Below, one piece after another: positions 1,930 to 49,723 of a stretch of DNA of 55,887 nt. The translations under genes were made by a program, and so were the position numbers. This DNA is from a virus. Each line of letters begins with the position of its first letter. The first letter of the stretch is position 1. Location of the stretch: IMG/VR virus record IMGVR_UViG_3300017971_000328, positions 1 to 55,887 of that record. One strand, written 5' to 3'. The notes beneath the pieces were generated by a model that saw only the letters and a list, made by a program, of their open reading frames with translations, made no database searches and was not told the origin of the DNA.

Positions 1930-3114
1930 TTACTGTCTCCTGAATGTAGGGTCTAGGCGCATAGGAGCGTTTGGTAGCCTACGCTTCAATGTAGCCAACG
2001 TCACCCAGGGAGAATGAACTGCGGTATGTATGTTCCGACGACAGATTTGAATCTTCGTCGGTGTATTATTTGAGTCGATAGTCGACTTCTTCGGACTCTT
2101 GTAGAGTGGGGAACCACCACCAACTGGGAAAAAACTGAACTGCGACTTCTTGTTCCCAAGGAAGTCGTCGTCGTCTGAGATAGAAGTCAGTGTGGTGTAG
2201 TAAGAGTGCTTGTTTCCACGATACTTAACCTTCATGACGAGCTGATGATCCGAGTCGATGTAATCTGTCACAAAGCTATCAAAGCTGTGCGCATGGACCA
2301 AGAAGGCGACGTTTGTACCCTGCGTAAGAGGATAGACCAGAGCAGTTGGTCCATCCAGCGCCCTGAGATTCTGCGCGGGTCCGGCGATATTTTCTGTTAC
2401 CAGGAGTTGATTTTTGTAGGATTCCGTCCAGAGGAAGGGTTGCTGGGCTGTCCATGACCCACCTGGAGCCGGTGTAGTATATGCTAACCCGACCGTGTCC
2501 CAACAGGCTGTTCTATTAGGACCAAGTAGCTCTACAGGATTCCCTATCTTAATCCAATTCTCTTTGGTCTCGATATTGAGAGGCCACCACACGACCCCAT
2601 CGTTGTTTGTCGCGGGGAGTACTGATGTGTAGTGCTGGACAAATAACTGTCCTGTCTGACCCCAGAAGTTCAGGTAATAGCTGGGAGAGTTGAAAGCTCC
2701 GGATATACCAGAAGAGATGGAACTATGTCTGTTGTAGCGGTGTCGTCCTCTAGCCGAAGCGACAAGCGAGTTCCGACAAACCCGAAGCTGCGGAAACATA
2801 TCATCTTCGTCTACTTCAAGAGACAGTTTGAAGGAGATGCTTCCAGAGAAGTTTCCTCCTCCTTCGTCGAACAGATAGGGTCTAGCGACAGACCGAACCA
2901 GCTCCTCTGGCGAGGTTACACGGATGGGCTGCGGGAACCTGTAGTTTCTGATCTTCAGGTCCCACCAACAGTATCGATACATATTGGTCCATGTAGACCA
3001 GTCGCGCCCATGCCATAGATCGAAGTTAGTAAGCTGCGAAACCCAAGACGAAATGCTACTTGAGTTCAGAATTACTTGACCTTCTCCGAGCGGTATGCGT
3101 TTGAGATTCGTCAT
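1930..3114 (-). CDS. Tail protein, divergent member of the four-paralogue family
   Basis: 394 residues, no catalytic motif. It resembles the products at 3260, 4774 and 6612 in a Tyr-Cys-x-Trp-Asp segment near residues 48-52 (YCWWDLKI against YRCQWDIM), a DSDHQLVMKVKY segment matching their SSYDLVAAYTKK, and an end (KIQICRR, then NAPMRL) that lines up with their RIRFFLRD and APIKIEV. Unlike its paralogues it lacks the N-terminal GDV/DG.W module, so it may attach differently or serve as a core part. It is preceded by triple-hairpin array B and followed by array A. A GGGTTAGTATAAAG stretch 10-20 bp before the start resembles the late motif described elsewhere. Probably a receptor-binding or tail-tip structural protein. 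Confidence 0.75.
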   Translation of the reverse strand: MTNLKRIPLGEGQVILNSSSISSWVSQLTNFDLWHGRDWSTWTNMYRYCWWDLKIRNYRFPQPIRVTSPEELVRSVARPYLFDEGGGNFSGSISFKLSLEVDEDDMFPQLRVCRNSLVASARGRHRYNRHSSISSGISGAFNSPSYYLNFWGQTGQLFVQHYTSVLPATNNDGVVWWPLNIETKENWIKIGNPVELLGPNRTACWDTVGLAYTTPAPGGSWTAQQPFLWTESYKNQLLVTENIAGPAQNLRALDGPTALVYPLTQGTNVAFLVHAHSFDSFVTDYIDSDHQLVMKVKYRGNKHSYYTTLTSISDDDDFLGNKKSQFSFFPVGGGSPLYKSPKKSTIDSNNTPTKIQICRRNIHTAVHSPWVTLATLKRRLPNAPMRLDPTFRRQ

Positions 3115-3158
3115 CGCTACTTTATACTAACCCTGCATTTCTACAAGGATTTTACTCT

Positions 3159-3244
3159 GGCAGGACTCAATATGGGCCTGCCGTACTCTGGCAGGACTCA
3201 ATATGGGCCTGCCATGCTCTGGCAGGACTCAATATGGGCCTGCC
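3159..3244 (-). repeat. Triple tandem hairpin array B
   Basis: Three copies at 3159-3182, 3190-3213 and 3221-3244, exact 31-bp period. Minus-strand unit: stem GGCAGG/CCTGCC (6 bp) and 12-nt loop CCCATATTGAGT. All three cores are identical; only the linkers between them differ. The array begins 16 bp after the stop of the gene ending at 3260. Confidence 0.9.
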
Positions 3245-3259
3245 AATATTCCTTAAGAC

Positions 3260-4591
3260 TCATTGGACCTCAATCTTGATAGGCGCTCCCTGCATTCCCA
3301 TGGAAAACTGGACGCGCATATCGGAGAGAGGACTGATGAGTCCTGTTGTCTTGTCTCGCAAGAAGAAGCGGATACGAGGAAGCTGGTAGGTCGCACTGTA
3401 GTTGAGCAAGACTGTCCCCTGCCATTGCTGAGGCCAACAGGCGCTAATCTCCACCCAAATCAGGTCGTTCCACCTCTCTTCGTAGGTAGTTCCTGCTCCT
3501 CCAAGATTGATTGTCCTAATCTGGATCGTCTTGTCTTTTTTCGTATACGCCGCTACGAGGTCATAGGAGCTGACATCGAACCAGCTCAAACCTAAGCGGT
3601 CGACCCCCATGGGCTTGACCAAGAGGGCATTGTAGCCGCTTCCTTGTCTCTCCAGGCGATAGAGACGGAGGACCGAATAGTTCGGACCGAACTGGCGCAT
3701 GAGAGCTGAGGGGGAATCAAAGAAATCCCAAGAGGTGTCGTATGCTGTCTTACTCAGTGCACACCAGATCGCAAGCTTCCCGCCACTGTTGACGTAGGTA
3801 TTCGGTACAGGGGTATTAATCCAAGAGGAGGTTCCCCAATCCCATTCCCTGCGTCCATTGTTTCCACCGATGTTTGATGAGAATCCAGTCTTCGGTAGAC
3901 CGTAGCGTTTTCGTCCACCGTCATTTCGAGCGAACCACAGGACACGCTCCGCGTTATCCGCTGCATTCCAGGTATACCCTGCTGGCAACCCCATCCCCTG
4001 ATTACAGAGGTCTTCAAACCACGCGGGGAGACCAGCCCAATTTGTAGCCGTATTCTCGCAAGCTACAACATATCCCGTCTTGTAGTTACGACGTCCCCGA
4101 AGATTGGAATAGAAAGTGTTCATTCCGTAGATCTTAGTGATACGCGGGCTCGCGGAGTCAATGACGTCGTAAATACGAGCTACGATGTTGTTCGTGTAGA
4201 CACCACCACCTGTCACGGCGTTCGCTGCGAGAAACGTATACGCATCCCCGATGGAGGAGAACTGCATACCAGACCAAGAGTTGACCAAGGAAGCACCACT
4301 GTCGAACTCGAAGATGTCCCACCGGCACTGTGAGTAGAAAGTGTAGGACCGAATGTGAGGAGACTTCCGCTGAGTAATGGACAAGAAGTTGCTTTGAAGA
4401 GTGGACGTATCTCCAGCTTTCGTTAGAATGAGCTGGTCATACTGCTGTTGGAGCTGTGCCGATCCGCTTCCTCCACCTACAGCAGTCCACACCCCATCTA
4501 GATAGCAAAAGTGGATCGTGCCGTCTGTTAGGAAGGCTACGTCCCCCGCTGTCGGTCCTACTGGAAGTGTGCTACCGTAAGGCTGTTTCAT
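3260..4591 (-). CDS. Tail/receptor-binding protein, paralogue of 4774-6108
   Basis: 443 residues. Residues 1-41 are the shared N-terminal module (MKQPYGSTLP, GDVAFL, DGTIHFC, DGVWTAVGG). The remaining about 400 residues align over their whole length with the 444-residue product at 4774: YSQCRWDIFEFD / YYRCQWDIMEVD, ARIYDVID / AKVYDVID, YGMNTFYS / WGINSFYS, WFEDLCNQ / WFEDLCDQ, KPMGVDRLGLSWFD / KPYGVDRLGLNWFD, and a common C-terminus. This points to a recent duplication followed by divergence, as seen in multi-specificity receptor-binding sets. There are no enzyme motifs. The gene lies between hairpin arrays C (upstream) and B (downstream). Exact virion location is unproved. Confidence 0.8.
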   Translation of the reverse strand: MKQPYGSTLPVGPTAGDVAFLTDGTIHFCYLDGVWTAVGGGSGSAQLQQQYDQLILTKAGDTSTLQSNFLSITQRKSPHIRSYTFYSQCRWDIFEFDSGASLVNSWSGMQFSSIGDAYTFLAANAVTGGGVYTNNIVARIYDVIDSASPRITKIYGMNTFYSNLRGRRNYKTGYVVACENTATNWAGLPAWFEDLCNQGMGLPAGYTWNAADNAERVLWFARNDGGRKRYGLPKTGFSSNIGGNNGRREWDWGTSSWINTPVPNTYVNSGGKLAIWCALSKTAYDTSWDFFDSPSALMRQFGPNYSVLRLYRLERQGSGYNALLVKPMGVDRLGLSWFDVSSYDLVAAYTKKDKTIQIRTINLGGAGTTYEERWNDLIWVEISACWPQQWQGTVLLNYSATYQLPRIRFFLRDKTTGLISPLSDMRVQFSMGMQGAPIKIEVQ

Positions 4592-20371: not shown

Positions 20372-21454
20372 GTGAAATTCCTACACGTAGCAGACCTCCA
20401 CATTGGAGCGAACAGCTCGATTCCTGGCTTCCTGGAGCGACAGGAAGCTGTCTACGATCAGATCTTCGAGGCAGCACAAGAGCATAAGGTAGACGCTGTA
20501 GTCATCGCAGGAGACATCTGGCACAAGCCTGTTCACTCCCCACAGGAGCGTGACCTCTGGCTGAAGAAGCTGCTGCAATACAACCAGTGTGGCTTCAAGA
20601 TTATCCAGATCTCAGGCAACCACGACTACCTAGAGCCAGGGCACACGCATCTCAGTCACATCACGTTCCAAGCTGACCTCGGTCGCCTGGAGAACGTCAT
20701 CTCGGCTGACACAGAGATCAAGCTCTACCGTCTGAAAGACTACCTCTTCCTGCTCATGCCAGACCAGACCTTCGAGACCTCAGAGTTCAATCAAGAGGTC
20801 GCTCGTCGCGTCAAGGAGCTTCAAGAATCATCCTTCGAGCTTCCCTTCAAGGGTATCATCGTCGTTGCGCACTTCGCCGTCAAGGGCTGTGCTGCCGATA
20901 CAGCCGGTGCGAGTGGCCAACAGTACCAGATGGAGAAGGGCATAGAGGTCACAGACAACCTTCCAGTTACCTACATCGCTCTCGGAGACCTCCATATCCA
21001 ACAGAGGGTTGGTCCCTGCTGCTACTACTCCGGTGCTCCCATCCAAACGAGGTGGGGCGAGGATCCGGAAAAGGGAGGTCTGCTGGTCGATACGGATGAC
21101 CCAGACAACCCGACTCCGATTCTCTTCCAGAGTAAGCCGATGCTCACCTTCTACGAGAAGCCTGAGAAATGGCCTGAAGATGCGTTCATTCGCTTCGTCA
21201 CGGATAAAGAGCCTCCAGATGACCTACCAGAAGACGCCTACGTGGTCGTCAAGCCCTCGAAGAGACCGATTCTTGTAGGGAGTGAAGGTGGGGGTGGAGA
21301 AGGTGGTGGGGGTAGTGATAAGCCCAATCTGCTCGAAAACCTAGAGAACTACCTCAAAGAGATCGGTTGCCCAGAAGAGCACATCGAAGTCGCTCTTGAC
21401 GAAGCCAAAGCCATGGCTCAAGAAAAGGGCATCACCCTCCCTGACAGCGATTAG
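20372..21454 (+). CDS. sbcD: SbcD/gp47-like DNA exonuclease, calcineurin-type phosphoesterase
   Basis: 360 residues from GTG 20372. The metallophosphoesterase core is clear: DLH at 8-10, GD at 47-48, GNHD at 82-85, a VVAHFAVKG histidine near 165-170, and ALGDLHIQQRVG later, in the order seen in SbcD, Mre11 and T4 gp47. The family works with an SbcC/gp46 ATPase to resect DNA ends and open hairpins; here a probable partner is at 55117-55887 on the other strand, about 34 kb away rather than adjacent. Unusually, the core is followed by a Gly/Glu linker (GGGGEGGGGSD) and a helical domain of about 50 residues (NLLENLENYLKEIGCPEEHIEVALDEAKAM), perhaps replacing the usual capping region as a docking element. 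Confidence 0.9.
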   Translation: MKFLHVADLHIGANSSIPGFLERQEAVYDQIFEAAQEHKVDAVVIAGDIWHKPVHSPQERDLWLKKLLQYNQCGFKIIQISGNHDYLEPGHTHLSHITFQADLGRLENVISADTEIKLYRLKDYLFLLMPDQTFETSEFNQEVARRVKELQESSFELPFKGIIVVAHFAVKGCAADTAGASGQQYQMEKGIEVTDNLPVTYIALGDLHIQQRVGPCCYYSGAPIQTRWGEDPEKGGLLVDTDDPDNPTPILFQSKPMLTFYEKPEKWPEDAFIRFVTDKEPPDDLPEDAYVVVKPSKRPILVGSEGGGGEGGGGSDKPNLLENLENYLKEIGCPEEHIEVALDEAKAMAQEKGITLPDSD

Positions 21455-21545
21455 CTGCCTGACAGCGCCTGAATTCCTGCTTATCTTATATCAACTTAGT
21501 CAAAGAATAGTAGTGTGTGTAGGGAGACGTCAAAGAATATAGAAC

Positions 21546-21559
21546 GTTGCAAGTGCAAC
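21546..21559. promoter_or_regulatory. 14-bp perfect palindrome GTTGCAAGTGCAAC
   Basis: GTTGCA-AG-TGCAAC lies 19 bp before the ATG at 21578 in the 123-bp gap after the SbcD-like gene. Its size and symmetry fit a small operator or an mRNA leader hairpin. The same gap holds a TAGTCAAAG element at 21497-21505. Confidence 0.4.
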
Positions 21560-21577
21560 TGGCTGGAGAATGTAGCT

Positions 21578-22312
21578 ATGGTTGATTTGAAACAGAAGTT
21601 TGGAAAACACCTGAAGTACGCATCTTACGTTTTCCGTCACAAGTGGTTCGTCTTTCAAGAAGCTCGGAAGCTCGGGGTGACGAGGCAAGGTATCACTCAC
21701 GACCTCTCGAAGTTTCTTCCGGATGAATGGTTCCCCTATGTGGAGACATTCTATGGAGATGGTCGCAAGCCGAAAGAGGCAGTGAAAGCCGCCTTCAACA
21801 TGGCTTGGCTACGCCACATCCACAGGAATCCTCATCACTGGCAGCACTTCCTTCTTCAAGAAGATGAGGGCGATGCTCTGACTCTCGACATGCCGGAAGC
21901 CTACATCCGTGAGATGGTGGCGGACTGGAAGGGTGCTGGGAAGGCACAGGGGCATGGGGATGACGTCCGCGACTGGTTCGACAAGAACCACCACAAACAC
22001 CGAATGTCACATCGTACCAGATGGATTCTCTATGGGCTCCTGGAGCGGTACGACCTGTTGCTCAAGATTCTTGTAGAGGCGACCAAAGACAGCATTCCTC
22101 CAGGTGTTGTCCGCATTGGAGCCAATCGTGGGCACCTCATGCTGGTCGTCCAGAACCTCAACGAGAGCGTAGGACGCTGTGAGCGTTGGTTCGATTCCAT
22201 CCAAAAGTGCGGAATCGTTACCGAAGACTACTACATGACGGTCTATGAAGAGGATGAGCCCAAGCCTGGGATGCAGTACTTCATAGATATCAACGACTAC
22301 CTTTTCTCCTGA
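21578..22312 (+). CDS. DUF5662-like protein
   Basis: 244 residues from ATG 21578; an in-frame start 21 codons upstream would include a Cys-rich lead (MCRETSKNIERCKCNW) running through the palindrome and is less likely. The body matches the DUF5662 pattern common in phages and bacteria: HKWFVFQEARKLG, then ITHDLSKFLPDEWFPYVETFYG (HDxSKF..EW.pY), and a later AWLRHIHRNPHHWQHF with clustered histidines that may bind metal. The last 60 residues (VQNLNESVGRCERWFDSIQKCGIV) form a separate small domain. The catalytic role of this family is not established. Confidence 0.75.
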   Translation: MVDLKQKFGKHLKYASYVFRHKWFVFQEARKLGVTRQGITHDLSKFLPDEWFPYVETFYGDGRKPKEAVKAAFNMAWLRHIHRNPHHWQHFLLQEDEGDALTLDMPEAYIREMVADWKGAGKAQGHGDDVRDWFDKNHHKHRMSHRTRWILYGLLERYDLLLKILVEATKDSIPPGVVRIGANRGHLMLVVQNLNESVGRCERWFDSIQKCGIVTEDYYMTVYEEDEPKPGMQYFIDINDYLFS

Positions 22313-22340: not shown

Positions 22341-22354
22341 AGAAGGAGGATGCT

Positions 22355-23048
22355 ATGGAAAGCATCGTAGTGGAGATTCGTGCTGCTGAAGGCGGCATGG
22401 ACGCGAAGTTGTTGGTGGAGCAGCAGGTACAGATCTACAAGCGCTACTGCCAACGGAGGTCTCTTTAGCTTTACGATCTTGCGTCAACTCCCTGGGTTGG
22501 CTGAGGTCAAAATCGAAGGGAAGAAGCTGCTGAAGCTCTTCTCTCAGGAAGCAGGAGGACACAGATGGCAACGGGTACCCCCAACCGAGAAGCGTGGACG
22601 TGTTCAGACGTCTACCATCACCGTGGCTGTCTTACCCATCGTTTCTCCGCAGTCCGTCCACCTCTCTGAACGCGACCTCTCCTGGAAGGCTTGCCGGGGC
22701 TCCGGTCCTGGTGGTCAACACCGCAACAAGACCGATTCCGCTGTTCAGCTCACTCACAAGCCGACAGGCATTGTTGTGCGCTGTGAGTCGGAGAGGAGTC
22801 AGCCTACAAATCTGAGGTTGGCCAAAGAGGTATTGGCTGCACGCCTCCAGCAACAGTCCGACGAAAAGACAATGAATACGCAGAACAAGAAGCGTAGAAG
22901 TCAAGTTGGAAAGGGAATGCGGTCGGACAAAAGGCGTACTGTTCGTGTCCAAGCCGGGAAGGTTATCGACCATCTCAGCGGGAAGAAGATGAAGGTGGCG
23001 AAGTATCTTCGCGGAGATATTGAGTCACTGTGGCACACCACCCCCTAA
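22355..23048 (+). CDS. Class-I peptide chain release factor, RF1-type, requiring +1 frameshift
   Basis: Begins at ATG 22355 (AAGGAGG 5 bases upstream). Frame 0 runs 37 codons (MESIVVEIRAAEGGMDAKLL..., KRYCQRRSL) to TAG 22466-22468. The rest is read one base forward from AGC 22467 to TAA 23046-23048. Joined length is 230 residues, continuous with release-factor domains 2-4: EAGGHRWQRV, the PxT codon-recognition tripeptide PPT at 75-77, CRGSGPGGQHRNKTDSAV with GGQ at 119-121, then RSQPTN and MRSDKRRTVRVQAGKVIDHL. Domain 1 of full RF1/RF2 (about 100 residues) is absent, as in short RF-1-like proteins. PxT predicts reading of UAA and UAG. It would release peptides on the ribosome, possibly sustaining termination or rescuing host ribosomes during infection. 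Confidence 0.85.
22455..22468 (+). promoter_or_regulatory. Programmed +1 frameshift signal resembling prfB, with UAG
   Basis: GGAGG (22455-22459), a 3-nt spacer UCU, the slippery codon CUU (22463-22465), then the in-frame stop UAG (22466-22468) followed by C. In bacterial prfB the order is an internal Shine-Dalgarno-like AGGGGG, 3 nt, CUU, UGA, C. Spacing and slippery codon match; only the stop is changed to the one an RF1-type factor reads. Confidence 0.75.
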
Positions 23049-23062
23049 TCTGAAAATCCCAC

Positions 23063-23071
23063 AGGTTATCT
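23063..23071 (+). promoter_or_regulatory. Putative late promoter motif (AGGTTATCT)
   Basis: Plus-strand copy of AGGTTAnnT in the 39-bp gap between the release factor and the tape-measure-like gene, 17 bp before the GTG start. It shows that the motif follows gene direction on both strands. Confidence 0.45.
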
Positions 23072-23087
23072 TCTGTCGAGGTACCAC

Positions 23088-26042
23088 GTGGCAGATGCTG
23101 CTAGCCGAATGCTCGCTGGTCGAGCGAAGAAGATCACTGCTGTCGGAGCTGCGTATAAAGACGCGCTCACGTCGCAAAAAGAGTTCACGAAACACCAGCG
23201 CAATTTGATTGCAGCCCTGAAAGGCGGCAACCGAGAGACAGATGTAGCTGCCAAGAAGGTCGGTCTGCTGAGTCGTGCCTACCAAGGCGTCACCGGAACA
23301 ATCAAGAAATACGGTATCGAGATCTCCGGAGCGGCGGCTGCGACCCAACTACTACGTCTAGAGCAGCGTGATACTGCCAAGGGTATCGAGCACTTCTACC
23401 GAACGGCAGACAAGCTTCCAACCCAGCTCAACCGCACAGGCAGCCACTTCGAGAACATGGGGAAGACAGGCTCAAAGGCATATGGTCACGTTGGTGACGC
23501 CTTGAACAACCTGGTCTCCGGTGAGTTCACGAAGTCCTGGAAAGACGTCAAGAAGATGACTGGAGAGGGAGGTCTCATTGATACCTTCCTCGGTACCAAA
23601 GGAGCGATGGGCGCAGTCATGACCTCTCGTCGCTTCGCTGTCGCTGTTGCCAAAGACGCGCATAGTCTCGCCCAAGCGTACAACGTTCCTGCCGAAGCCG
23701 TTCGTGACCTCCAGCGTGAGCTGAAGATGACGATGCGGAGTGGGACACGCAATACGAAGGAATACCAGAATGAGCTGAAGGCGGTAGCCGACCGCATCCT
23801 CTTTGCGGAGAAAGCTCTTGGAGTCGACAAGGCCGATGCGGTCGCCTTCGTGAATCGATCTATGTGGGAATTCGGCGAGACAGCAGAGACAGCCGGGAAG
23901 CGCTTGACGAACCTGAACAACTACGTTGAGGTCTCAAACGAGTTGCTCCAGAAGCAGGGGAAGTTGTCCAAGGGAGCCACCGCACAGTGGAAGGATGACT
24001 ACGCTAAAGCGGTTCTTGAAGCATCCTCAGCCTCGAAGCACCTGTTCCTGAACACAGACAAACTCGCTGAAGCCATGATGGCGTCTGCCCACTCAGCGCA
24101 CAAAGCGGGGCTGTCCTACAACCAGGTGCAGCGGACCATGAAGGCCATCCCGCAGATGCTCGGGAACACTCCTGAGTTCATGCAACAGAGGATGGGCGGC
24201 GCATTCTTGAAGATGGTCAACGACGGGGAGAAGTTCGAGAAATTCCTGGAAGGAATGCCCAAGAAGAAAGCTGACAACATCAGAGCGAGCGTCAAGAATA
24301 TCAAGAAATACGGCGGGAACGTCCTGACGAAGCGCGGAGCCCTCTTTGAGCTGCTTGGCGGCACCGAAGGCGGCATGAAGATGGCTTTCAAGGAAATCAA
24401 AAACCTTGGAACGGATTCCGCCCGAGCTGAGCTGCTGCACAAGATGTTCGGTATCGAAGATAGGATGACGGCGATCAACGTCTTGGCGACTCTTGAAGAG
24501 GGTGGGGGTGGCCTCGAAGAGTTCACCAAGAAGGTCAAGGAAGCCAAGGGTAAAGAAGGAACTGCGTGGGACAAAGCCTTCAAGGACCAGAAAAAGGGTC
24601 TGGGTGTCCTGACCACTGCGGAAGACGCGCTCGGCAAGCTCAAGAGGCACCTCGACGAGATCTCTGAGAATAGAATGCTATTGGGCGCAGCAGCGGCTAC
24701 AGGAGGCTTCACAGGGCTCTTCAAGAGACTCTTCGGTGGTGGCGCAGCTTCGGCGGCTGGAGGTCTTCTTCCTGGGGGTGGTGGGGGTGGTGGGGGTGCC
24801 ATGGCTCTTGCTGGAGGAGGCGGTGGCGGCGGCATTATGCGCTCTCTTGGGGGCATGGGAGCCGCGTTCCTGGCTTCTGGGGTCACGGCAGGGAAGTTCG
24901 CTCTCGGCGCTGCTATGGGCGGTGGAGGCGGTCTTATCGCCAACGTCTTGGGTCTCGTCGGGAAAGCAGGCGTAGCTCTCAAAGCCGGTGCAGCTCTCGC
25001 GGCACCCTTCGCAGCTCTCGCAGGAACTCTGCTCGTTTCCGAGCGGATTGCTCGTCGTATAGCCAAGACGGATAAGAGCATCCTAGAGTGGAGAGAAGAA
25101 TCCCAACGTGTAGAAGAGGCGATTGCCAAGCGAGAGAAGAAAGACATCGAAGCTGGAGAACTGAAGGTCACCAAGGGACCTCAGCGGAAAGACCTCCTAA
25201 GTAGAGGACTCCGTGCGGTCACTGGTGGACTGTGGGACCGACGCTTTGAGAATGTGGTTGCTTCTGGCGGTACAGCAGCCAGAAAAGACATGCTAGATCA
25301 AATAACAGGGGGTATGCCTAGCGACCTGGAAGGCAAATCAGCTTCCGACCTCGACAAGATGAGGTACAACGGAAAGAGCCCCATTGGCCTCATGTGGGGA
25401 CGTCCAGACCTCGCAGCCGACATCTCCAAAGCTCTACAAGCAAAGGGAGCCTCTCCGGAAGCTATTGAGGGAGCGCTGAAGCTCCGTGCCGCTCGAACAG
25501 GAGCCTCTCTCAAATCCTTGAAGCATCGCATCGCAGCAGCTAAAGGCGAGACCATAGCAGAGCGCGCCAAGTCGAAGTCCAAAAGAGAGGATGAAGCAGC
25601 TCTAGCGGCTGCGGATCGCATGCTGGCAGAACGCTCAGCTCAAGCAGCTACACCTGTGGCTGGTGGAGAAGAGGTTGCTATAGACGCTGGTCAACGTTTC
25701 ATGGACGAACGACGAACGGCGGACCTCTCATCAGCTATTGCTCCAGCCCCTGGAGGAATCGCAACCCTCATGAATGAGGCGAAGCTTGGAGCAGCAACAA
25801 AGATCAATCCAGAGGTTCTCAGGAACCTAATTGGTAGGGACAAGATGGCAGCCATGGTTCCTTCTGCTGCTCGTGGGAATCAAACCACACGTGCCCCCAG
25901 AGTTGGCGACATCCCGCTCAACGCAGGCGTAGACAACATGGGGAAGCTCACTCTCACCCTTGACAATTTCTACGACCTCTTAGGAAACTACGATGCTGCC
26001 AAAGAGTCTCAACTTCCCTTTGGCACAGGTGTGCCCCGCTAG
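23088..26042 (+). CDS. Tape-measure-like / large virion protein with Gly-rich hydrophobic segment
   Basis: 984 residues from GTG 23088 (GAGG 6 bases upstream). Long alpha-helical, Ala/Lys/Glu-rich sequence, interrupted near residues 560-650 by glycine runs and a strongly hydrophobic stretch (GGLIANVLGLVGKAGVALKAGAALAAPFAALAGTLLV). This combination (extended helices plus central membrane-active segments) is typical of phage tail tape-measure proteins, which set tail length and may enter the host membrane. The last 330 residues are charged, Ala-rich and probably disordered. Unlike most phages it is encoded on the opposite strand from the head genes. Other possibilities are an injected inner virion protein. 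No lytic enzyme domain was seen. Confidence 0.5.
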   Translation: MADAASRMLAGRAKKITAVGAAYKDALTSQKEFTKHQRNLIAALKGGNRETDVAAKKVGLLSRAYQGVTGTIKKYGIEISGAAAATQLLRLEQRDTAKGIEHFYRTADKLPTQLNRTGSHFENMGKTGSKAYGHVGDALNNLVSGEFTKSWKDVKKMTGEGGLIDTFLGTKGAMGAVMTSRRFAVAVAKDAHSLAQAYNVPAEAVRDLQRELKMTMRSGTRNTKEYQNELKAVADRILFAEKALGVDKADAVAFVNRSMWEFGETAETAGKRLTNLNNYVEVSNELLQKQGKLSKGATAQWKDDYAKAVLEASSASKHLFLNTDKLAEAMMASAHSAHKAGLSYNQVQRTMKAIPQMLGNTPEFMQQRMGGAFLKMVNDGEKFEKFLEGMPKKKADNIRASVKNIKKYGGNVLTKRGALFELLGGTEGGMKMAFKEIKNLGTDSARAELLHKMFGIEDRMTAINVLATLEEGGGGLEEFTKKVKEAKGKEGTAWDKAFKDQKKGLGVLTTAEDALGKLKRHLDEISENRMLLGAAAATGGFTGLFKRLFGGGAASAAGGLLPGGGGGGGGAMALAGGGGGGGIMRSLGGMGAAFLASGVTAGKFALGAAMGGGGGLIANVLGLVGKAGVALKAGAALAAPFAALAGTLLVSERIARRIAKTDKSILEWREESQRVEEAIAKREKKDIEAGELKVTKGPQRKDLLSRGLRAVTGGLWDRRFENVVASGGTAARKDMLDQITGGMPSDLEGKSASDLDKMRYNGKSPIGLMWGRPDLAADISKALQAKGASPEAIEGALKLRAARTGASLKSLKHRIAAAKGETIAERAKSKSKREDEAALAAADRMLAERSAQAATPVAGGEEVAIDAGQRFMDERRTADLSSAIAPAPGGIATLMNEAKLGAATKINPEVLRNLIGRDKMAAMVPSAARGNQTTRAPRVGDIPLNAGVDNMGKLTLTLDNFYDLLGNYDAAKESQLPFGTGVPR

Positions 26043-44623: not shown

Positions 44624-47600
44624 TTATTTGGATTTTGGGATGTGCCCGGTCAAAAGTTGGCTGGAAGCCATGGGCCAATTCCGAGTGTTTTGTTCAGGAG
44701 CTGCCCGTCTCGGCTGATTATCATCAGTCTTCATGGACGCCATCATGAACAATTCGTTGACCTGCTCTGGATTTGCAGCCTGTGGAACCCTCTTGGTCAG
44801 ATGGTTCACGATGTCAGCAGCAACATCCGGCTCCAATGAGACGTCCTTAATGAGTCCCAGTCTCGCCAGAATGTACTGTGCAAGCTGCTTCTTCTTGGGA
44901 TTGAGCAATCCCATCTGCATGGCATAGCGTCCCTGACGACCAATACCCCTGGCGTTCAACACCTTTTTGACGAGGACTTCGGCTTCTCTCTGACGGAGGT
45001 CGACGAACTTTTTGTCCCGACTCCAAATGGGAAGGCTGCGCATGATCTGAACAACCTGCTCCGACGTTCCTTCAGGGATGTTAATGTTGACCACTTGAGG
45101 AGGCTGCGGAGGAGCAGCAGGAGTCTCCACCGGAACCACGTCCGGAAGAGGGACCTCTTCTTTCGGAGGATCAGCCAGAAGCAACTGCATCTGGAAGGAG
45201 CGCTCCAGGTCCGTCAAGAGGAGCTTCTTGGGGTCAATCTCATCCGGACGCTTCAACCGCACAACATTGTAGTACGTGCATGTGTAGAAATCCGGCCTAT
45301 CAGAGGACAGCTCAGGAACTATCCGAACATACTTGGTTTTATGCGACACAAAGATGCGTACACGGGAGACACAAGTCAGCGCGTTCTGCGGATGTGTCGG
45401 GAAGGGACTCTTGGTCCTCAAGAACTCCGCGAGAGACTTCCCCCACGAACCAGACTGGCGAGCCTGCGTCTGGTTCAGCTTGTCAATGAGGTTCTGCCAC
45501 TCATCCATAGGAATGTCGACCGTCTTATACTCCAAGACGTCAGACTTCAAGTATCCCTGTGGAGGTATGACATCATCCGGAAGAATTCCATCCAGGAGGT
45601 AGCCGAGATCTACAGGAACATCTTCCGACGTCGCCGTGACACCTTTCTTATAGATGGTATCAGCGAGAGAGAAGTAGCCATTCTTGTAGAACTTCGTCGC
45701 TGCTTGTGCCGTATCAGCCGCCTTCTTGTGCGTCTTCAACGCCTCCATCAGAACGTCTCGGATGGACTTTGTGAGCTTCTCCTCTTGTTCAGGAGTGAGC
45801 TTGCGGACAGGACGCTTCTTCGGCGTCGGAGGAGGCAGCTCCTCTTCAAGAATCTCTTCCTCAGCTCCCTCAGCTCCCTCAGCTCCAGGAACCTTTTCCC
45901 CTTCTTCCAGCTCATCCTTCACCTCTGGAGGCAGCTCGGGGATCTCAGCGTCTGGATGCGTTTCCTTGACCTTATCGATCAATTCTGGTAGGTCTTCTTT
46001 CTCGACTTCCAGAACATGGGGCTCTTCACCCTCTCCAGGCAGCTCTTCCGGAATCTCAGGAAGACCCAACTCTGGAGGCATGCCGCCTTCTTCTTCACCC
46101 TCTTCTGCACCACCGAAGCCAGGAAGCTCCCCGAAGTCGCCTTCCTCTTCTCCTCCTTCTTCTCCCTCGAATTCACCTTCAGCGGCATTGCGCCAAGGTG
46201 TCAGCTCTTGACGGAGTTGAATATCTTCAGGCGCTTCTGTTCGGAGCTGTGCGAGGTCGAGACCCAGGACCTTGGCCCACATCTCTAGGTTGACAGGGAT
46301 ACCCTTGTCTTGAGCCATCTCCAGGAAGTCGCGTGCTTCCGGACTCACAGCCGTCAGCCACTTCTTGATCTCTACACGGAGAGCAACATCGTCATCCTTG
46401 ACTTCAAGAAGCTTGTCGAGGTTCAACCCGTAGGCAGAGGAAACCTCCGCGATTGGAACGGGGACGCCCTGCTCTATAGCGTCACGAATCTTATCTGGCA
46501 TTTCAGGAGATGCTTGTAGAGCCCACTGACGGAACTTCCTCCGCAGTGCTACATCATCTTCCATAGCCAAAGCCAGCTCATCGATATCCAAACCAATCGA
46601 GTTGGCCCAAACTCTCAGGGGCACAACCAGACCAGACTCTTGAGTGATGTTCTGGATCTTGTCCGCGTAGTCTGGGTCCGTCGCCGCTTGGTATTCTCGT
46701 AGAGACCGACGAAGCGCCAAGTCTTCCGGAAGACGCTCCAGCTCATCTTGAAGGTCGAACCCCGCAAAGGTAGCCCACGTCTTCAGAGTGACAGGGAGAC
46801 CGCGCTCTTGCGCCATCTCCAGAATTTCTAGATACTCACGGTCGGCTACAGGACGGAGATTCTTGGAGAACTGAACCGTAGGGATCATCCACTCTTCGTT
46901 CGTCGTCGAGTCGGCGATACGGTAGCGGTGCGCGAGCTTCTTCTCGGGGATGCGTCGGAAGTTGTTGATCTCAGCGATTGGCTTAAGGATCTTGTCTTCG
47001 ATGAAGAATCTGGTGATGAACTCCCGGTGTGCCCGTACCCTTTCCAGGAAAACTGACAACAGGGTCTCCATTGTATTACTGGAAAGTAGACCATTTGCTA
47101 CAAAGGAACGATTCTCTCGGTCCTCCATAGAGAGGTCGTACACAGCGTGTTCTCCAGCCTCGTCAATGGAAGTAACAGGAGTGAATCGATATCGTAGTAC
47201 AAAAAGAGCCTTCAACTTCGCAGTGAAACTTGGGCTAATTTTGTGGAGCGCTGTCAGCAGACTCGTGTAATCGCCACGGTCATCACGGTCATACAACAGG
47301 CGCTTCTCATCACGAAGAGGATGCGTCCCTAGTTTATGCCAACTGATGCAGACTTCCTCACCCGAGTCATTCTTGTAGAAGCTCCCGTGTCTGTTGGTCT
47401 TTGTTTGACGGGCTTTCAAGAATTCTTGCAAGGGCTCAATAGGAATTCCAAAACGATTCCTAGACTTTAGCTTCCTTCCCTGCACGATGCTTTTCGTGAG
47501 AACATACGGCTTGAGATTCTTGTAGAGTTCAAGGCTATCATGACGGTCCAAGGTCAGCCGTCGACCATTCCGACGAGCTGAAGCATAGCCATGCGCATTG

Positions 47601-49723
47601 AGCACCGCTTGAATGCCGCGAAGAAGTTCTGGACTTCCACTCAGGAAGGTAGCCTGCTCTCTGTTCTCTCTAACAGACCCATCTCCTTCCAAGAAAGCTG
47701 CCAAGAAGGCATTCTGAGAAGACGCGTCTGCTTGAAGAATAGACCACGGAACCTCTTTTTCGAGAGACTTCTTCTCCGTGAATCCTAGTTCATTCAACCA
47801 GCAGCATACAGGAAGGCTATCAAATTTAGTGGCGTAGACGTTCTTATGGCATACTGTCTCGACACCATTGATACTTTGAGGGGTACCCTCTTCAAGCATA
47901 AGGTGCCTGGTTCCTGTCAGCCCGAACACCTCAGCGACAAAACCCTCTACTTTATCCAGGAAAGAGAGATCAGAGTTGGAGAACCAGAAGGAGTACTTAT
48001 CACGCCACCCTTCAGCCGTCAGACTGCCCAACACATAGGCGAGCATTGGCGTCATGGCGCGTGGCTTCTGGACCTCTTTGGTTGCTCCATTGGCAATATT
48101 TTGCCGCGCAGAGGCACTAGTCAGAGATGCTCCAGGATGCTTCGTCAAGTAGCCTTTTGTATCCAAACCATGAGCGAGGATATGCGACCCAAGACTCTTG
48201 TATGTTTTTCCACACTCAGCACACGTGACAAAAGAGTCCTCAGTCTTCTTACAGGCATCACTGAGAGAGAATTCCAATGTGGTCTCTCTCACCACCTTAT
48301 TTGTGCTGATACAGAGGAGGTCTCCTTCTTGAAGATCTCTCAGCTCTACGAAGTCTAGGTCGACTCCTCGCAGTACCAACAGGGGATGCGTTGGAGTACC
48401 TGTCAGTTCATTACCACTTTCTGTAAGAATGCGGTATGTTGGAGCTTTCCCGTTGTAGAGCCAAACTTTTGTACTAGCCAGTCCAAAACGAGAGTCTACT
48501 GTAACGCTCAAAGGACGGGGAGTCTTTTCGTCTGGGTTCTTTTCTTTGAGCAACTCGTCTAGACGTACAATCCCCTGTTCCTTCGTTGGAACAAGGGTGT
48601 CTCCGGTCAGACATGAATAGGTGGCGTCACCACTCAAAAATGACTCATTGATTCCAAGAGCTTGCATCTTCGCTTCGGTGATAAATTGCCACTCATCACT
48701 GATTTTTAAGATATCCTGAGCCGAACCACCACCAGCTTCACTGAACTCGATACCCTGTCGGACACCTACGACAGCTCCTACAGGGTCCTCTTCGGCAGCC
48801 AGAAGAGCTTCAACGGCTTCGTTGATCTCGCCTACTGTTGGTTCCCAATCCTCGTTTCCTACCGTGACGGTCCGTACTGCTCCAAGGCGACGACGCACAG
48901 CAGCCTGAGACCCTTGAATGAGACCCTTCTGGTAGGCGATGATATCGAGGATCCTTGTGTAGATGGAGGTCCCTACAGAGTCCGTCGCTGAGGACCTTCT
49001 AGCAATGTAGGAGGTGTTGCGCGGGTCGAGAGGAATCTCCTGTCCTTTAAGGAGATAGGCCAAGAGGTCCTGAGAGAGCTGCTGCTTAGCCGCGATGTCT
49101 CTGGGGTCCTTGCTCCGTGCGAACTGTTTCATCGCGTCTGTAGGCACGAGGTCGAGCTTCGGAGCCAACCCTGGGATAGGGATGGGGCTGATCTTGATAT
49201 AGTCTGGGTCATGGAGAATCATCCGAGACCAGTACCCCTTCGAGGAGTCGAAGAGGAAGTGAGGGATGAACCGACCCAACATGAGAAAATCGAGTGAAAT
49301 GAAAGGAAGCTGCGATTCGAGCTGGATGGCTTCGAGGCAGTCTTCGTAGATTTGGAGAATCTTGGGGTCTTTGACTCCAAGGAGACCGAAGTCAGACCAT
49401 GGCATATCCTTGTAGAGGTCGACAGCGGGTCCTGCCGTAGCATCCTCTACGTAGATTTTCCGCCAAAGCTCGTTCTGCTTCCTGTAATCGTTTGGAATGA
49501 AACGAGAAGTGAGAGTGTCCAGCGTCAGGTCATCATACGTCGGGTTGTAATACGTCCTACCAGGAGACGTCGCTGTCCTCGAATGGGAAGCCGTCTTGTG
49601 TTTTGCCTGGTCAGACAGATGCTGGAAGAAAGCCTGTCTTACATCCTGTGGACCGGGCTGCGCAGACGCAGTCCGAACGCTGTGTTGTCGAGCACGACGA
49701 CGAGACCTAGCTATACTGAACAT
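44624..49723 (-). CDS. Portal protein precursor with in-frame intein
   Basis: 1699-codon frame. Removing residues 371-883 leaves a mature protein of 1186 residues. The N-extein has portal-type features (FDSSKGYWSRMILHDPDYIKISPI, SDEWQFITEAKMQALGINESFLSGDATYS). The C-extein continues directly with TMETLLSVFLERVRAHREFI, the long portal helix. Then follow four helical repeats of about 56 residues (964-1183), an acidic Gly/Glu/Pro linker (about 1184-1330, EGEEGGEEEGDFGELPGFGG), and a C-terminal domain. The portal ring is the DNA channel at one capsid vertex; the gene lies between terminase and protease as expected. The mature length is about twice that of a typical portal, owing to the repeats, acidic linker and C-terminal domain. 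Confidence 0.85.
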   Translation of the reverse strand: MFSIARSRRRARQHSVRTASAQPGPQDVRQAFFQHLSDQAKHKTASHSRTATSPGRTYYNPTYDDLTLDTLTSRFIPNDYRKQNELWRKIYVEDATAGPAVDLYKDMPWSDFGLLGVKDPKILQIYEDCLEAIQLESQLPFISLDFLMLGRFIPHFLFDSSKGYWSRMILHDPDYIKISPIPIPGLAPKLDLVPTDAMKQFARSKDPRDIAAKQQLSQDLLAYLLKGQEIPLDPRNTSYIARRSSATDSVGTSIYTRILDIIAYQKGLIQGSQAAVRRRLGAVRTVTVGNEDWEPTVGEINEAVEALLAAEEDPVGAVVGVRQGIEFSEAGGGSAQDILKISDEWQFITEAKMQALGINESFLSGDATYSCLTGDTLVPTKEQGIVRLDELLKEKNPDEKTPRPLSVTVDSRFGLASTKVWLYNGKAPTYRILTESGNELTGTPTHPLLVLRGVDLDFVELRDLQEGDLLCISTNKVVRETTLEFSLSDACKKTEDSFVTCAECGKTYKSLGSHILAHGLDTKGYLTKHPGASLTSASARQNIANGATKEVQKPRAMTPMLAYVLGSLTAEGWRDKYSFWFSNSDLSFLDKVEGFVAEVFGLTGTRHLMLEEGTPQSINGVETVCHKNVYATKFDSLPVCCWLNELGFTEKKSLEKEVPWSILQADASSQNAFLAAFLEGDGSVRENREQATFLSGSPELLRGIQAVLNAHGYASARRNGRRLTLDRHDSLELYKNLKPYVLTKSIVQGRKLKSRNRFGIPIEPLQEFLKARQTKTNRHGSFYKNDSGEEVCISWHKLGTHPLRDEKRLLYDRDDRGDYTSLLTALHKISPSFTAKLKALFVLRYRFTPVTSIDEAGEHAVYDLSMEDRENRSFVANGLLSSNTMETLLSVFLERVRAHREFITRFFIEDKILKPIAEINNFRRIPEKKLAHRYRIADSTTNEEWMIPTVQFSKNLRPVADREYLEILEMAQERGLPVTLKTWATFAGFDLQDELERLPEDLALRRSLREYQAATDPDYADKIQNITQESGLVVPLRVWANSIGLDIDELALAMEDDVALRRKFRQWALQASPEMPDKIRDAIEQGVPVPIAEVSSAYGLNLDKLLEVKDDDVALRVEIKKWLTAVSPEARDFLEMAQDKGIPVNLEMWAKVLGLDLAQLRTEAPEDIQLRQELTPWRNAAEGEFEGEEGGEEEGDFGELPGFGGAEEGEEEGGMPPELGLPEIPEELPGEGEEPHVLEVEKEDLPELIDKVKETHPDAEIPELPPEVKDELEEGEKVPGAEGAEGAEEEILEEELPPPTPKKRPVRKLTPEQEEKLTKSIRDVLMEALKTHKKAADTAQAATKFYKNGYFSLADTIYKKGVTATSEDVPVDLGYLLDGILPDDVIPPQGYLKSDVLEYKTVDIPMDEWQNLIDKLNQTQARQSGSWGKSLAEFLRTKSPFPTHPQNALTCVSRVRIFVSHKTKYVRIVPELSSDRPDFYTCTYYNVVRLKRPDEIDPKKLLLTDLERSFQMQLLLADPPKEEVPLPDVVPVETPAAPPQPPQVVNINIPEGTSEQVVQIMRSLPIWSRDKKFVDLRQREAEVLVKKVLNARGIGRQGRYAMQMGLLNPKKKQLAQYILARLGLIKDVSLEPDVAADIVNHLTKRVPQAANPEQVNELFMMASMKTDDNQPRRAAPEQNTRNWPMASSQLLTGHIPKSK
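46181..46834 (-). repeat. Four about 56-residue tandem repeats in the portal
   Basis: Each repeat follows the plan E-M-A-Q-x-x-G-(L/I)-P-V-x-L-x-x-W-A-x-x-x-G-L-D-L ... E-D-x-x-L-R-x-x-(L/I)-x-x-W. Copies start near residues 964, 1020, 1076 and 1130. Probable helical bundle added to the portal crown or clip. Confidence 0.7.
47075..48613 (-). mobile_element. Intein with DOD (LAGLIDADG) homing endonuclease and C2H2 finger
   Basis: 513 residues from Cys371 to Asn883 of the portal precursor. Block A begins CLTGDTLVPT. Block B has TPTH (Thr443, His446). Block F is near VTSIDEAGEHAVYDLSMED, and block G is FVANGLLSSN, followed by Thr884 as +1 residue. The penultimate residue is Ser instead of the usual His. 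The endonuclease has two DOD motifs (YVLGSLTAEGW, about 563-573; FLAAFLEGDGSV, about 673-684). A C-x2-C-x9-H-x3-H finger (501, 504, 514, 518) lies between the splicing and nuclease parts. Inserted in the conserved FLSGDATYS portal motif, typical of inteins. Confidence 0.92.

What the first reader, a model, noticed from the sequence alone, without database searches (positions are those of the whole stretch)
22355..23048. Phage RF1-type release factor with a UAG version of the prfB +1 frameshift signal
Seen: the release-factor frame stops at UAG after codon 37 and continues, fully homologous, in the +1 frame. The site GGAGG-UCU-CUU-UAG-C has the same SD-like element, 3-nt spacing and CUU slippery codon as bacterial prfB, but UAG replaces UGA. 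The fused protein has the RF1-type PxT tripeptide (PPT) and GGQ. Known: bacterial RF2 reads UGA and autoregulates through a UGA frameshift; I know of no established UAG/RF1 counterpart. Inference: a self-limiting loop in which scarce UAG-reading factor raises frameshifting and makes more factor. This could let the phage sense and buffer termination capacity, useful because many of its genes end in TAG. Caveat: a single-base sequencing error could create the same break, although it would not explain the prfB-like context.
Basis: partly seen in the sequence, partly recalled or inferred. Interest (0 to 1): 0.93.

Follow-up and report, generated by a model that had tools for sequence, protein, structure and literature searches.

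The report
Frameshift-controlled third release factor
A phage gene for a stop-codon-reading protein is deliberately broken by a stop codon that ribosomes must slip past, a device known for the bacterial RF2 gene but found here, with interchangeable stop codons, in an undescribed RF1-like family of phages and some bacteria, which suggests that cells and viruses repeatedly invent this way of sensing how well translation stops.

Summary
At 22454-22469 the window reads CGGAGG-UCU-CUU-UAG-C; frame 0 ends after 37 codons, and the rest of a class-I release factor (PPT, GGQ) continues in frame +1. It is not a sequencing error. Of 103 distinct related loci with a +1 break, 102 break at a CUU-stop, usually with GGAG(G) three bases upstream and C after the stop. 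Both halves are under purifying selection.

The protein belongs to a clade apart from RF1 and RF2. It is RF1-like in its tripeptide, lacks domain 1 and has no RtcB partner. It occurs in phage contigs and on chromosomes, chiefly of Myxococcota, that also carry full-length prfA and prfB.

The site stop is UGA in 80 loci, UAG in 19, UAA in 3, and switches repeatedly on the tree, although the factor stays PPT-type and should not read UGA. About 100 further relatives use an in-frame UGA instead, most with a covarying 3' hairpin. I read this as recoding that couples factor synthesis to termination failure, direct at UAG sites, indirect at UGA sites. A 2025 survey found no TAG in prfB motifs; Mimivirus eRF1 (CUU-UAG-C) is the nearest precedent.

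The parts
22343..22349 (+). Shine-Dalgarno of the release-factor gene (AAGGAGG), 5 nt before ATG
   Evidence: sequence
22355..22468 (+). 0-frame ORF: 37 codons (start of RF domain 2) ending at UAG 22466-22468; purifying selection in relatives
22455..22459 (+). internal SD-like element GGAGG, 3 nt before the slippery codon
   Evidence: pairing with anti-SD -10.7 kcal/mol, strongest in the gene
22463..22469 (+). slippery codon CUU, in-frame stop UAG and following C; +1 slip CUUU then AGC
   Evidence: CTT in 102/103 relatives
22467..23048 (+). +1-frame ORF: rest of domain 2, domains 3 and 4 of the release factor, ends UAA
22578..22586 (+). PPT, the PxT stop-codon-recognition tripeptide (RF1 type)
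   Evidence: sequence; alignment A1
22710..22718 (+). GGQ peptidyl-tRNA hydrolysis motif (family form GGQHRNKT)
   Evidence: sequence; alignment A1

Best explanation
The gene encodes a third class-I release factor: RF1-like, without domain 1, distinct from prfA, prfB and prfH. It is expressed only when the ribosome, paused with CUU in the P site and an in-frame stop in the A site and pulled by an internal Shine-Dalgarno-like element, slips +1 instead of terminating. The in-frame stop therefore acts as a meter of termination: slow termination gives more factor. In this phage the stop is UAG, which a PxT factor should read, so the loop would be direct negative feedback. In most relatives it is UGA. 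There the site would report scarcity of host RF2, and the product would relieve it indirectly by taking over UAA termination. Shown: conserved site, conserved coding on both sides, family and fold. Inferred: that shifting happens, its efficiency, the regulation and the codon specificity.
For: Site conserved at the same protein position across a family diverged to about 45-60% identity. Consensus C-GGAGG-N3-CUU-stop-C with 3-nt spacing in 78 of 102, as in the hosts' own prfB (CGGAGG-CAT-CTTTGAC in Nannocystis). dN much lower than dS on both sides. No likely internal start: 0 of 102 loci have an SD-led ATG in the +1 frame. UAA is strongly under-used at the site (3 seen, 22 expected from the same genomes, no simulation of 2000 as low), as expected if the stop must be one that a single host factor reads. 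Genomes with a UAG site use more TAG (0.43 against 0.27 of TAG+TGA, p=0.003). A second recoding device, in-frame UGA with a covarying 3' hairpin, sits within a few codons of the same place in another branch of the family. An intact close relative models as RF1 domains 2-4 in the ribosome-bound shape (pLDDT 90.6; TM 0.88 to RF1 on the ribosome).
Against: No expression data. The UGA majority does not fit simple self-reading by a PxT factor. The link between site stop and genome stop usage is not secured against relatedness (only 3 independent pairs on supported branches). A few relatives are uninterrupted (L046, L053, L056, L064, L076, L084, L121-L123), so recoding is dispensable. The fused window protein itself could not be modelled here.
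Confidence: 0.6

Rival explanations
1. Fixed throttle: the site merely caps the amount of a factor that would be toxic in excess. The stop is chosen for leakiness and nothing is sensed.
For: Stop identity switches freely between UGA and UAG while tripeptide and recognition residues do not follow. UGA-C is a weak stop (established knowledge). UAA avoided.
Against: A weaker SD or start would throttle more simply. Two different recoding devices evolved around the same place, both built on an in-frame stop codon, and prfB, the closest analogue, is known to autoregulate.
Confidence: 0.2
2. Cross-sensing only: the site measures host RF1 or RF2 availability, with no feedback from the product; in effect a detector of the infected or stressed state.
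For: UGA sites in 80 of 102 with a PxT factor. Host prfB carries nearly the same motif, so both would rise together when RF2 is short.
Against: Does not by itself explain UAG sites such as the window's, where the product should read the site stop.
Confidence: 0.13
3. The product is mainly a ribosome-rescue factor (like PrfH), not an ordinary terminator, and is induced by termination failure.
For: Lacks domain 1 like PrfH; third factor in cells that already have prfA and prfB; phages face ribosome-damaging defences.
Against: Keeps PxT, GG at the first-base contact and RF1-type recognition loop, unlike PrfH (PMC1586002). No RtcB or other constant neighbour.
Confidence: 0.1
4. Sequencing error, pseudogene or two separately started proteins.
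For: Single contig, reads not available; GGAGG could in principle be a start signal.
Against: Same break in over 100 independent loci; purifying selection on both sides; no start codon at a suitable distance in the window.
Confidence: 0.02

Closest known systems
Bacterial prfB (RF2) programmed +1 frameshift
   Same: SD-like element, 3-nt spacing, CUU, in-frame stop, following C, +1 shift early in a class-I release-factor gene.
   Different: RF1-like factor; shift lies in domain 2 because domain 1 is absent; stop may be UAG or UAA as well as UGA. Prince et al. 2025 (PMC12421855) found TGA in 98.6%, TAA in the rest and TAG in none of 8,164 motifs, and no frameshift in prfA.
Mimivirus R726 / Megavirus mg280 eRF1 genes
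   Same: Viral class-I release-factor genes that need +1 shifting at CUU-UAG-C (Mimivirus) or CUU-UAA-C (Megavirus), plus a UGA-C readthrough (PMC3521657). The same mix of devices is seen here across one family.
   Different: Eukaryotic/archaeal-type factor, amoeba viruses; shift and readthrough lie in one gene. The family here is bacterial-type and usually uses one or the other.
Peptide chain release factor H (PrfH/RFH)
   Same: Class-I factor without domain 1, additional to RF1 and RF2.
   Different: RFH has an SxY tripeptide, shortened loop, GP instead of GG, and an RtcB gene next to it (PMC1586002). The family here has PxT, GG and no RtcB; prfH model 104.2 bits against a cut-off of 166.65.
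RF1 of UGA-recoded (code 4) phages
   Same: Phage-encoded RF1-type factor (reported for code-4 phages, cited in PMC10746230); some members here carry in-frame UGAs in low-TGA genomes (L034-L036, L396, L402).
   Different: The window and most frameshift members use the standard code with TGA as an ordinary stop.

Membership tests
prfB-type programmed +1 frameshift (as a device) | In-frame stop after a CUU slippery codon, homologous product in frame +1 | tested here: met
prfB-type programmed +1 frameshift (as a device) | SD-like element 3 nt upstream of CUU and C after the stop | tested here: met
   window sequence; consensus
prfB-type programmed +1 frameshift (as a device) | Stop codon UGA (UAA in 1.4%) | tested here: not met
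   UAG in the window and in 18 relatives
prfB-type programmed +1 frameshift (as a device) | Product reads the site stop and limits its own synthesis | not testable with these tools
   expected for UAG with a PxT factor; needs an assay
RF2 (prfB gene) | SP(F/Y) tripeptide | tested here: not met
   PPT
RF1 (prfA) | PxT tripeptide and GGQ | tested here: met
RF1 (prfA) | Domain 1 present and NCBIfam prfA cut-off reached | tested here: not met
   Pfam PCRF only from profile position 101; 212.7 bits against 400; separate clade, SH-aLRT 99
PrfH / RFH | SxY tripeptide, GP at the first-base contact | tested here: not met
   PPT and GG
PrfH / RFH | Adjacent rtcB gene | tested here: not met
   no recurrent rtcB-like cluster among neighbours
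Mimivirus-type eRF1 | Eukaryotic/archaeal class-I factor | tested here: not met
   bacterial PCRF and RF-1 domains

The most novel reading that the evidence does not exclude
The domain-1-less PPT factor reads UGA as well as UAA and UAG (a bacterial-type omnipotent factor). Every UGA, UAG and UAA site in the family would then be a direct self-limiting loop, and this would be a third codon specificity among bacterial release factors.
Probability: 0.13. Interest if true: 0.92.

Novelty: new variant of a known kind. Interest (0 to 1): 0.8.

Why it matters
It adds an undescribed class-I release-factor family, shared by phages and bacteria, in which recoding control arose outside prfB, in two forms (slippage, and stop readthrough with a hairpin). 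The first form allows all three stop codons. It contradicts the view that only RF2 is controlled this way and that TAG is excluded from the motif. Because UGA, UAG and UAA versions exist in one family, the question of what the site senses (its own product, host RF1 or RF2, or termination in general) can be tested directly by swapping stops in a reporter.

Tried and rejected
Sequencing error, pseudogene and internal initiation. Alternative genetic code for the window: rejected, TGA ends 12 genes. PrfH-RtcB system: rejected. Coupling between site stop and recognition residues: none after correction for multiple testing (715 tests). Downstream RNA structure at the frameshift sites: none worth noting (z -0.1 to -0.3), unlike the in-frame UGA class (z about -1.7). 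Rfam match at one readthrough hairpin (L118): none. Upstream neighbour in five loci that I took for an RNA ligase: no Pfam match, claim dropped. Phylogenetic correction of the stop-usage link: too few pairs.

Full report
WHAT IS THERE. The window is a 55,887-base IMG/VR virus record, probably a fragment, with 52% G+C, no tRNA genes and standard stops (25 TAA, 17 TAG, 12 TGA outside this gene). At 22355 an ATG with a good Shine-Dalgarno opens a frame that ends at UAG after 37 codons. The site is C-GGAGG-UCU-CUU-UAG-C, and the +1 frame continues to 23048. The fused 230-aa protein matches Pfam PCRF from profile position 101 on, and RF-1. It is RF1-like (prfA 7.7e-63, prfB 1.1e-41, prfH 6.3e-30), yet far below all three NCBIfam cut-offs. 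PDB sequence neighbours are RF1 first, then RF2, then PrfH.

IS IT REAL. A scan of viral contigs with the fused protein gave 14 full-length relatives (48-56% identity), every one with a +1 break at the same aligned Leu codon. Four more viral scans and one genome scan, dereplicated, gave 283 distinct loci: 103 with a +1 break, 124 with an in-frame stop in the same N-terminal stretch, 54 uninterrupted (most of these ordinary prfA) and 2 odd cases. Of the 103, 102 have CTT before the stop: 80 UGA, 19 UAG, 3 UAA. They comprise 73 IMG/VR contigs, one INPHARED huge phage (LR745208), 27 bacterial contigs and the window. The consensus is C-GGAGG-N3-CUU-stop-C. CTT makes up 13% of the other Leu codons of these genes. 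Anti-SD energy is -8.3 on average against -2.8 in control windows, and the window scores -10.7. Sixteen related pairs show dN far below dS on both sides of the break wherever both could be estimated. Internal starts are unlikely.

THE FAMILY. On a tree built without the site columns, the family stands apart from RF1 and RF2 (SH-aLRT 99). Most inner branches are weakly supported, so only broad statements are safe. Site stops change at least 18 times by parsimony among the frameshift rows. The window's nearest neighbours include UGA and UAA sites. Carriers include complete or near-complete genomes of Minicystis, Nannocystis, Pyxidicoccus and Labilithrix, and alphaproteobacteria such as Jiella and Rhodovibrio. 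The carriers that I searched whole have, besides this gene, full-length RF1-type and RF2-type factors; several host prfB genes keep CTT-TGA-C, while the prfA genes have no CTT-stop. In Jiella the gene lies between an rnhA-like and a peroxiredoxin-like gene (read from sequence), that is, in ordinary chromosome. No constant neighbour and no RtcB was found. An uninterrupted relative from the window's clade (L053) models with pLDDT 90.6 as RF domains 2-4 and matches ribosome-bound RF1 at TM 0.88.

A SECOND DEVICE. In 124 loci the interruption is an in-frame stop, nearly always UGA. In 89 of the 123 loci with enough sequence, other genes also end in TGA with little sign of read-on, so the standard code applies. 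In the main group the UGA replaces the codon for the aromatic residue of the 'GW' motif of RF1 (alignment) and is followed by a hairpin about 8-10 nt downstream. Folding energy is 1.7 SD below other windows of the same genes (n=96). The stem shows 73.7% paired cells against 66.0% in shuffles, and 40 double-change cells against 14.5. The one-column slide scores almost as well on covariation, and inspection of L205 shows why: some members pair in a register one base off. A few low-GC phages carry two UGAs and rarely end genes in TGA (for example L396, L402), which may be recoded genomes.

HOW IT MOST LIKELY WORKS. The mechanics are inferred from prfB, where they are established: SD-anti-SD pairing and slow termination favour a +1 slip of tRNA-Leu from CUU to UUU. 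Slow termination therefore makes more factor. With PxT the factor should read UAA and UAG (tripeptide rule as summarised in PMC1586002), so UAG in the window closes a direct loop. For the UGA majority the product should not read the site. Either it senses RF2 scarcity and relieves it by taking over UAA, or the site is only a throttle, or the factor reads UGA after all. Two observations favour a function for the stop's identity over chance: UAA is avoided (3 seen, 22 expected), and sites with UAG lie in genomes richer in TAG (0.43 against 0.27, p=0.003; G+C does not differ significantly, p=0.17). The second is not secured against relatedness. No recognition residue tracks the site stop, and the tripeptide is PPT or PPN in most.

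KNOWN AND NEW. The device is that of prfB. Prince et al. 2025 (PMC12421855) found no TAG among 8,164 motifs and no programmed shift in prfA. Jeudy et al. 2012 (PMC3521657) showed that Mimivirus eRF1 needs a shift at CUU-UAG-C and a UGA readthrough, and that Megavirus has CUU-UAA-C. That is the nearest viral precedent, in an unrelated factor. The huge-phage paper lists release factors and my text search of it found no mention of recoding in them. I found no paper describing this family; most subscription journals and preprints were not searchable. I therefore file it as a new variant of a known kind: a known device in a new gene family, with free choice of stop and a parallel readthrough form.

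LIMITS. Loci were found by conserved peptide patterns and are not a census. Genes around the loci were called by a simple script. The tree is a quick one. Nothing here measures shifting, regulation or codon specificity.

Noticed in passing
L118:10097-10180 and about 95 similar loci (alignment A7): Related release-factor genes of standard-code phages and alphaproteobacteria carry one in-frame UGA (GGC-UGA-A/C) at the Trp of the GW motif, followed by a covarying hairpin: a readthrough counterpart of the frameshift.
   Followed up: partly
L041:10112-10114 and L059 (same aligned place): Inside the frameshift clades, two members have CUA or CUC before UGA and continue in frame, as if slippage had been swapped for readthrough.
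   Followed up: no
L013, L033, L059: The recognition loop is shortened (HRWQHAPTGK, HRVQRTSNGR, HRWMRDRTGK) with loss of the usual PxTE; L033 also has GGQGVNTT. Codon specificity may differ.
   Followed up: no
L016, L018, L020 (about 2830-3490): A divergent subfamily (HRVQRIPKGEQRRHTS) that also has a CUU-UGA +1 break.
   Followed up: no
L396, L397, L402, L407, L391 and L034, L036, L073, L107: Low-GC phages with two in-frame UGAs in the release-factor gene; in several of them genes almost never end in TGA, suggesting partial or full UGA recoding.
   Followed up: partly
G009:C146:20057-20380 and 22954-23277: A Sandaracinaceae MAG carries two copies of the factor about 3 kb apart.
   Followed up: no
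L154:10001-10668: The Nannocystis pusilla copy has a frame offset of 2, perhaps an assembly error; two sister species show the ordinary +1 site.
   Followed up: no
window 44624-49723, minus strand: A 1699-aa ORF contains intein splicing and LAGLIDADG domains (Pfam).
   Followed up: no
window 20372-22312, plus strand: The release factor follows an SbcD-like phosphoesterase gene and a DUF5662 gene and precedes a 984-aa ORF without family match.
   Followed up: no
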